In this document: in pieces, positions 22,835 to 24,560 of the stretch | Layout: every line of letters begins with the position of its first letter | Numbering within the stretch: the first letter of the stretch is position 1 | Source: Gemmatimonadota bacterium | GTDB taxonomy: Bacteria > Gemmatimonadota > Gemmatimonadetes > Longimicrobiales > Gaopeijiaceae | DNA: 64,000 nucleotides | Direction: 5' to 3' | Assembly: GCA_027623325.1 (NCBI GenBank) | Contig: JAQBXY010000001.1 | Coordinates: 237,007 to 301,006, forward strand | The notes under the pieces: model-generated | What the model was told of the DNA's origin: nothing | Seen by the model: the letters and a program-made list of their open reading frames with translations, nothing else | The model's database searches: none | Translations under genes and position numbers: made by a program

Positions 22835-23928
22835 CTGTACGAGACGATGGTGCCGTTCTCAGTGACTATCACGGCCACAAGGTTGCTCGGCACTTCGGGG
22901 ATCCGTCCGCCGAATACGAAGCCGCGACGAAGGCGGTGGCGGTGTTCGACCGAGGTCATCGGACTCGCCTAACGGTCTCCGGCCGGTCGCCGGGTCAGAT
23001 GTTGAACGGCATTCTCACGGGGCGGATGCCAGCCCCGCCCGCTGCCAGCGACGAGGCCGTTCTGGGCGGCGTGGCTACCTACCACGCGGTCCTCACGCCC
23101 AAAGGGAAGATGATCACCGATCTCTGGGCGTTGCTGCCCGGCGAGGAAGAGTCTCCTGGCTTCCTCCTCGACGTCCCGGTCGCCGGACGCGAGGGACTAC
23201 TAGATCATTTTCGGAGGTTCATGCCCCCACGCTTCGCGGCAGTCTCCGACGTTTCGAGCGCGTGGGGCTCGGTCTCCGTCGTGGGGCCGGAGGCAGCGGG
23301 CCTCGTCTCGCGTCTCGCGCTCGGTCTGCGAGTAGACGACGCCTGGTTTCGCGGAACGACCGAAGGGGAGTGGCGTCGGGTGGGCCAGTCGTCTGATGGA
23401 CTCATCGTGGCCCGCACGCACGAAGTGTGGCCCGACGCCTGGACGATCTACGGTCTGACCGACGCGGTCACGGCGCTGAGACACGTGCTGATCGGAGCCG
23501 GAGCCAGGCCTGCGGGGCTGGGCGTCTGGTCGACCCTGCGAATCGAGGCGGGCCGTCCCGTGTTCGGGTCGGACATGGACGAGCGCACGATTCCGCCCGA
23601 GGCGGGCATCGTCGATCGGGCGATTGATCAACAGAAGGGATGCTACACGGGACAGGAAGTGATCGTGCGCATCCGCGACCGCGGCCACGTGAACCGACAA
23701 CTCCGCCGGCTCGAACTGGGCGATGTGGCCGCTCCGCCCTCCGGCAGTGAACTGCACGACATCGATGGTTCCGGAAAAGTGGTCGGCGAAATCACATCCG
23801 TGGCACAGTCTCCCGCGTTCGGCGGAGTTCTCGCGATGGCCTACGTGCGTAGAGGCGCGGAACGAGTGTTGTTCAACGGTCGCGAGATCCCGGTCCCGGA
23901 ATTCGTCGTGGCTCCTACCCGCGGCTAG
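22831..23928 (+). CDS. ygfZ: Folate-binding YgfZ/GcvT-like protein
   Basis: DQQKGCYTGQEVIVRIRDRGHVNRQLRRL carries the YgfZ KGCYxGQE motif. Confidence 0.88.
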   Translation: MTVRDDGAVLSDYHGHKVARHFGDPSAEYEAATKAVAVFDRGHRTRLTVSGRSPGQMLNGILTGRMPAPPAASDEAVLGGVATYHAVLTPKGKMITDLWALLPGEEESPGFLLDVPVAGREGLLDHFRRFMPPRFAAVSDVSSAWGSVSVVGPEAAGLVSRLALGLRVDDAWFRGTTEGEWRRVGQSSDGLIVARTHEVWPDAWTIYGLTDAVTALRHVLIGAGARPAGLGVWSTLRIEAGRPVFGSDMDERTIPPEAGIVDRAIDQQKGCYTGQEVIVRIRDRGHVNRQLRRLELGDVAAPPSGSELHDIDGSGKVVGEITSVAQSPAFGGVLAMAYVRRGAERVLFNGREIPVPEFVVAPTRG

Positions 23929-24560
23929 CGACCGATCTCTTCCAAGGCCGCGAGAATGTCTGCGTTCTCGGGTCGGGTTCGGTAGTTCACCTCAGTCATC
24001 TTCCAGCGCACGATCCCTTCCATGTCGATCACGTAGGTCGTCGGATGTGGGATCGCTCGACCCTGCGAGTCGTCCTGGTTGAAGAGGCCGTACCGATTGA
24101 TGACGGCCGCCTCCGGATCGGAAAGGAAAGGAAAGTCCAGTATCAAACCGTCGTTCTCTTCGGCTACCCGATCGACCATCATCTGAAGCTTGGGCGCGTC
24201 GTCCGACGAGAGGGCGATCAGTTCCGTCGTGGCTTTCTGTTCATCGGTCAGCAGGTCTTGCAGCTCCCCGAGCTGCTTGGCGCAGTAGGGTCACCAGTGG
24301 CCGCGATAGAAGACCAGGATCACGTTCTTCATGCCCTGGTAGCTCGACAGCGTGACGGGTGGGCCCGCCAACGATACGAGTGAGAAATCGGGCGCGGCCT
24401 GACCGACCTGAACTCTATCGAGGTCGGTCGCCGCGAGATCGTGACCGTCCACCGGCCCCAGCACGACCTGCTCAGGCTCCTGGTTCGCTGTTTCCTGCTG
24501 CGCTGTACACCCGGCCACCCCTACCACCCCCACCAACAGCGCGACTCCGAGTCGATGCAT
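23925..24560 (-). CDS. Peroxiredoxin/AhpC-TSA-like lipoprotein, selenoprotein with UxxC active site (Sec codon UGA at 24293..24291, residue 90)
   Basis: Two ORFs in the track (24291..24560 and 23925..24182) are one frame interrupted only by TGA: ...GQAAPDFSLVSLAGPPVTLSSYQGMKNVILVFYRGHW[U]PYCAKQLGELQDLLTDEQKATTELIALSSDD... Cys homologues of this family have WCPYC. Lipobox GVAGC. Confidence 0.93.
24260..24276 (-). promoter_or_regulatory. Candidate bacterial SECIS hairpin in the peroxiredoxin-like selenoprotein
   Basis: GCAGCUC-GGG-GAGCUGC: perfect 7-bp stem, GGG loop, loop begins 21 nt after UGA. Confidence 0.75.

What the first reader, a model, noticed from the sequence alone, without database searches (positions are those of the whole stretch)
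23925..24560. Split ORF is a selenoprotein: peroxiredoxin-like lipoprotein with a HW-U-PYC active site
Seen directly: the minus-strand ORFs 24291..24560 and 23925..24182 are in the same frame, separated only by TGA at 24293..24291. Between them the frame is fully open and reads FYRGHW*PYCAKQLGELQDLLTDEQKATTELIALSSDDAPKLQ. Family knowledge: AhpC/TSA-redoxin-like proteins have FYRGxWCPYC here, so the TGA sits exactly on the catalytic Cys. The gene has a lipobox (GVAGC), implying a membrane-anchored exported redox protein. selD lies about 2 kb away. Peroxiredoxin-like UxxC selenoproteins are known as a class; this lipoprotein version and its lineage may not be described.
Basis: partly seen in the sequence, partly recalled or inferred. 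Interest (0 to 1): 0.9.

Follow-up and report, generated by a model that had tools for sequence, protein, structure and literature searches.

The report
Exported redox selenoprotein in Gemmatimonadota
A gene that looks broken by a stop codon in fact very likely encodes an exported redox enzyme that uses the rare amino acid selenocysteine; the stop codon and its RNA signal are conserved across dozens of related bacteria, so it is a solid new member of a known class of selenoproteins.

Summary
The finding holds. Window 23925-24560 (-) is one gene with a single in-frame TGA (24291-24293) at residue 90; the read-through protein is an AhpC/TSA redoxin with a U-P-Y-C motif. An orthologue was found in 77 of 200 related genomes, each with a TGA at that codon. 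Behind the TGA lies a conserved 7-bp hairpin that meets the published bacterial SECIS model; its outermost pair covaries, and rare AGA arginine codons keep it. Three class-mates have TGC at this site; they lack selA and have lost the hairpin, a natural negative control. The mature protein has only U90 and C93 as Cys/Sec residues. C93 aligns with the peroxidatic Cys of peroxiredoxins and U90 with their Thr, so this is a UxxC 'Prx-like' protein, not a canonical peroxiredoxin. That class has been known since 2005; this exported Gemmatimonadota subfamily is not mentioned in the papers I could search. The lipoprotein anchor is lineage-specific: other members show a cleavable signal peptide or N-terminal membrane segment. 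Sec insertion and enzymatic role are inferred, not shown.

The parts
23925..24560 (-). Prx-like (AhpC/TSA, redoxin) selenoprotein gene, 211 aa, UxxC active site
   Evidence: Read-through translation; Pfam PF00578 1.2e-30; model pLDDT 91, nearest solved fold AhpE
24291..24293 (-). Sec-TGA codon, residue 90
   Evidence: TGA at this codon in all orthologues, located codon by codon; TGC only in three selA-less genomes
24282..24284 (-). Cys93 codon, partner of U90 in UPYC
   Evidence: C93 in 99% of 84 Sec orthologues; U90 and C93 are the only Cys/Sec of the mature domain in 83 of 84
24260..24276 (-). bacterial SECIS-type hairpin GCAGCUC-GGG-GAGCUGC, 21 nt between UGA and apical loop
   Evidence: 98.2% of pair cells kept in 73 sequences, outer pair UA 48/GC 20/AU 1; decayed in TGC orthologues
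24507..24560 (-). lipoprotein signal peptide with lipobox VAGC, lipid-carrying Cys18
   Evidence: Sequence; similar N-termini in same-genus relatives
20801..21862 (-). selD, itself a selenoprotein gene (SHGAG-U-ACKLG), makes selenophosphate
   Evidence: TIGR00476 3.1e-116; TGA 21794-21796, TGA at the same place in all 10 relatives in which the motif was found
26772..27803 (-). YpdA-type pyridine-nucleotide thiol-disulfide reductase, conserved neighbour
   Evidence: TIGR04018 3.7e-120; same strand as and within 150 bases upstream of the selenoprotein gene in L053, L057, L062

Best explanation
The gene encodes an exported, here lipid-anchored, thioredoxin-fold selenoprotein of the UxxC Prx-like (redoxin) class. 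UGA-90 is decoded as selenocysteine by SelB and tRNA-Sec, directed by the hairpin that follows it (supported by conservation, covariation and gene content; not shown experimentally). The protein most likely works as a two-residue redox enzyme outside the cytoplasm: the Sec90 selenolate attacks an oxidant (an envelope peroxide or a disulfide), Cys93 resolves it as a selenenylsulfide, and a periplasmic thiol carrier, probably fed by a CcdA/DsbD-type transporter, reduces it back (inferred). Selenoprotein status about 0.98; exported UxxC oxidoreductase about 0.9; peroxide or disulfide substrate undecided.
For: TGA fixed at one codon in all orthologues of 77/200 relatives. Orthologue and selA co-occur: 75 of 77 with the gene have selA against 70 of 123 without it (Fisher p 1e-11). 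SelA, SelB and a UCA tRNA-Sec are in this genome. The hairpin meets the published bSECIS limits (3-9 nt loop, G in its first two positions, 4-16 bp, 16-37 nt from UGA; PMC13188914). Covariation: 21 two-sided cells against 5.8+-1.8 in shuffles. Codon constraint: CTC at residue 97 in 80/82, CTG at 100 in 82/82, AGA at 101 in 37/48 arginines against 2% usage. TGC orthologues lack selA and the hairpin and nest inside Sec clades. Fold AhpE-like, TM 0.84-0.88 on the target. CcdA/DsbD-type transporter domains are present.
Against: No mass spectrometry or 75Se data. Only one of seven hairpin pairs varies on both sides, so most of the stem is conserved rather than covarying. The minimum-energy fold of the window's own 48 nt does not pick this hairpin, and the energy gain over synonymous shuffles is modest (mean z -0.8). 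No Rfam SECIS model hits it, but RF00031 hit none of the control genomes either. Two genomes have the gene without a detected selA (G053, G095: 76 and 85% complete).
Confidence: 0.93

Rival explanations
1. Pseudogene or sequencing error: the TGA is a nonsense mutation or a base-call error of TGC.
For: A single TGA in an otherwise intact frame looks like this; the window is from a draft assembly.
Against: Same TGA in dozens of separate assemblies with 46-73% protein identity, frame intact on both sides; downstream residues strongly conserved.
Confidence: 0.01
2. Genetic-code change: TGA is read as Trp throughout the genome, so residue 90 is Trp.
For: Some database proteins show W here (FYRGHW-W-PYC in P0002), probably from a gene caller using such a code.
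Against: Homologues without TGA have Cys here; the genome carries selA, selB and tRNA-Sec; the TGA is tied to a downstream hairpin that is lost when the codon is TGC.
Confidence: 0.01
3. Selenoprotein as described, but a true peroxidase (peroxiredoxin function) rather than a disulfide oxidoreductase.
For: Best sequence and fold matches are peroxiredoxins, AhpE and PrxQ types; C93 sits at the peroxidatic position.
Against: PxxxTxxC is not met (Thr replaced by Sec) and the catalytic Arg of AhpE (R116) aligns with P173; U90-C93 is a thioredoxin-type pair.
Confidence: 0.4
4. Selenoprotein linked to bacillithiol through its conserved neighbour YpdA.
For: YpdA adjacent and co-directional in several relatives; bshC in the genome.
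Against: YpdA shows no export signal while the selenoprotein is exported; a prolyl-oligopeptidase gene lies between them here; the neighbourhood is general synteny (Lon, YgfZ, XseB) and may carry no function.
Confidence: 0.12

Closest known systems
Prx-like UxxC selenoproteins (Prx-like thiol:disulfide oxidoreductase, PF00578; PMC1088965, PMC2398784, PMC13188914)
   Same: AhpC/TSA domain, thioredoxin-like UxxC site, bSECIS downstream of UGA
   Different: The passages read do not describe an exported or lipoprotein form or this phylum; whether the listed representative sequences are close relatives could not be checked
Cys-containing proteins annotated as 'peroxiredoxin-like family protein'
   Same: F-Y/F-R-G-x-W-C-P-x-C site in the same fold
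   Different: Cys in place of Sec; outside this phylum about 28-42% identity, and many lack an export signal
AhpE of Mycobacterium tuberculosis (1-Cys peroxiredoxin)
   Same: Closest solved fold and among the closest solved sequences
   Different: No CxxC; has the Thr and Arg of the Prx active site, which are absent here
Sec-peroxiredoxin (TxxU) and SelL-related proteins
   Same: Sec in a Prx-related fold
   Different: In TxxU Prx the Sec is at the peroxidatic position, in SelL the motif is UxxU (own knowledge); NCBIfam models PrxU and SelL-related score far below cut-off

Membership tests
Bacterial selenoprotein | In-frame TGA aligned with Cys of homologues, frame conserved past it | tested here: met
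Bacterial selenoprotein | bSECIS hairpin: loop 3-9 nt with G in first two positions, stem 4-16 bp, 16-37 nt from UGA | tested here: met
   7 bp, GGN loop, 21 nt (model from PMC13188914)
Bacterial selenoprotein | selA, selB, selC, selD in the genome | tested here: met
Bacterial selenoprotein | Selenium in the protein | not testable with these tools
   Needs 75Se labelling or mass spectrometry
Prx-like UxxC selenoprotein | PF00578 domain with UxxC | tested here: met
Canonical peroxiredoxin | PxxxT/SxxC motif and catalytic Arg | tested here: not met
   Thr position holds Sec, Arg aligned with Pro173
Lipoprotein | Signal peptide with lipobox ending in Cys near residue 20 | tested here: met
   LLVGVVGVAG-C18; not universal among relatives

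The most novel reading that the evidence does not exclude
A subfamily spread through one class of Gemmatimonadota of exported UxxC redoxins in which Sec is the ancestral state and the few Cys forms are reversions after loss of the Sec machinery: a long-lived selenium-dependent envelope enzyme in a phylum not discussed in the selenoproteome literature searched.
Probability: 0.5. Interest if true: 0.5.

Novelty: new member of a known kind. Interest (0 to 1): 0.42.

Why it matters
It gives a well-supported selenoprotein in a phylum whose selenoproteome is hardly described, and shows that routine annotation splits, truncates or mistranslates the gene. The paired Sec and Cys orthologues, with the hairpin lost exactly where selA is lost, make a clean natural experiment on how a selenoprotein reverts to cysteine. 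An exported, membrane-bound Sec redoxin also raises the question of how a Sec protein is kept reduced outside the cytoplasm.

Tried and rejected
Rfam SECIS models: no hit in the genome or the window; uninformative, since RF00031 rang in no control genome. NCBIfam gives no model above its cut-off for the read-through protein. Single-sequence folding does not single out the SECIS hairpin for the window's copy; the comparative alignment does. Literature: 'Gemmatimonad' with 'selenocysteine' gave 19 papers; judged by titles and abstract openings none is on Gemmatimonadota selenoproteins, and I did not open them; the 2026 review has no mention of the phylum. Supplementary files and the accessions in that review's table could not be opened.

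Full report
Observation. The minus-strand frame from 24560 to 23925 is open apart from one TGA at 24293-24291, residue 90 of 211. The protein has a signal peptide with lipobox VAGC, then an AhpC/TSA domain (PF00578, 1.2e-30, residues 52-186), with the TGA in FYRGHW-U-PYC. A TGA between two long open stretches is not rare in this GC-rich window (43 such frames), so the case rests on comparison.

Conservation of the TGA. Of 200 related genomes, 77 (the window's own included) hold an orthologue at E<=1e-20, and each carries one in-frame TGA (one copy, in G080, has an additional TAG). Codon-by-codon location puts the TGA at the residue-90 position in every locus examined, and in an Acidobacteriota relative (L065) as well. 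In a wider draw of 400 genomes only three, all of one genus, have TGC there. Sequencing error and pseudogene are thereby excluded.

Machinery. The genome (3.35 Mb, 60 contigs) contains SelA, SelB with its C-terminal SECIS-binding wing, a tRNA-Sec with UCA anticodon and SelD in the window. SelD is itself a Sec gene: the ORF listed from 21778 starts too late; from ATG 21862 it reads SHGAG-U-ACKLG with TGA at 21796-21794, and TGA is found at the same place in all 10 relatives in which the motif was found. Orthologue and selA co-occur strongly: 75 of 77 genomes with the gene have selA, 70 of 123 without it (Fisher p 1e-11; genomes are related, so the p value overstates independence). The two exceptions are the incomplete genomes G053 and G095.

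SECIS. Behind the TGA the orthologues share the hairpin (G/U)CAGCUC-GGN-GAGCUG(C/A). As a 7-bp stem with a 3-nt loop, 98.2% of pair cells in 73 distinct sequences form standard pairs, against 29-51% when the partners are slid; the outermost pair is UA 48, GC 20, AU 1, other 4, and the 21 two-sided changes exceed every shuffle. The inner pairs hardly vary, so covariation rests on one pair. Codon choice adds weight: leucine 97 is CTC in 80 of 82, leucine 100 is CTG in 82 of 82, and arginine 101 is AGA in 37 of 48 although AGA makes up 2% of arginine codons further along the same genes. The pairing partner explains it: AGA goes with U on the other side, CGN or CAN with G. Size, loop and spacing (21 nt between UGA and loop) fit the published bacterial SECIS limits (PMC13188914). 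Weak points are the modest energy gain over synonymous shuffles and the window's own minimum-energy fold.

Natural control. The three TGC orthologues (G213, G231, G353) have no selA, and the hairpin is broken in them. On a tree they nest, with database Cys proteins, inside Sec clades, which suggests Sec-to-Cys reversion; support values along the backbone are mixed, so the direction is likely but not proven.

What the protein is. The model is confident (pLDDT 91, pTM 0.84); the closest solved fold is AhpE of M. tuberculosis. In alignments the peroxidatic Cys of peroxiredoxins falls on C93, and U90 on their Thr; the AhpE catalytic Arg falls on Pro173. The peroxiredoxin triad is therefore not met. 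U90 and C93 are the only Cys or Sec residues of the mature domain in 83 of 84 Sec orthologues, which points to a thioredoxin-like Sec-Cys pair. The N-termini, judged by eye and simple rules, are lipoprotein-type in the same genus and some others, cleavable or membrane-spanning elsewhere: export is shared, lipidation is not.

Neighbourhood. Lon, selD, a SirB1-like protein, YgfZ, this gene, YpdA and an XseB-like ORF keep their order in most relatives examined. YpdA is directly upstream and co-directional in some, and bshC is present, but an exported protein cannot take electrons directly from a cytoplasmic reductase. CcdA/DsbD-type transporters exist in the genome and are the more natural route. 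Both are inferences.

Known or new. UxxC Prx-like selenoproteins were described in 2005 and 2008 (PMC1088965; PMC2398784) and are listed in the 2026 review (PMC13188914). The review does not mention Gemmatimonadota or lipoproteins. This is a well-supported new member of a known kind.

Noticed in passing
window 20801-21862 (-), TGA 21794-21796: selD is itself a selenoprotein gene; the listed ORF starts 28 codons late, after the TGA. The Sec form is conserved in the relatives examined.
   Followed up: yes
L021 1-510 (+) and L020 1-400 (-), contig ends of the same genome: A second redoxin with FFRGRW-U-PYC is split over two contig ends that overlap by 213 bases at 98.6% identity: a further selenoprotein, possibly in two strain variants in the assembly.
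   Followed up: partly
L136, second copy in genome G119: A paralogue keeps the TGA and the hairpin but has UPFS in place of UPYC, so the partner Cys is lost.
   Followed up: no
L119 (genome G080): One orthologue has, besides the Sec-TGA, a TAG inside the matched stretch: probably a decaying copy or an error.
   Followed up: no
proteins P0002 and P0009: Database proteins of this family carry Trp at the Sec position (HW-W-PYC, YW-W-PFC), most likely TGA translated as Trp by a gene caller.
   Followed up: no
L137, L138, L139 and P0005 in the tree: Cys forms nest within Sec clades at two or more places, suggesting repeated Sec-to-Cys reversion.
   Followed up: partly
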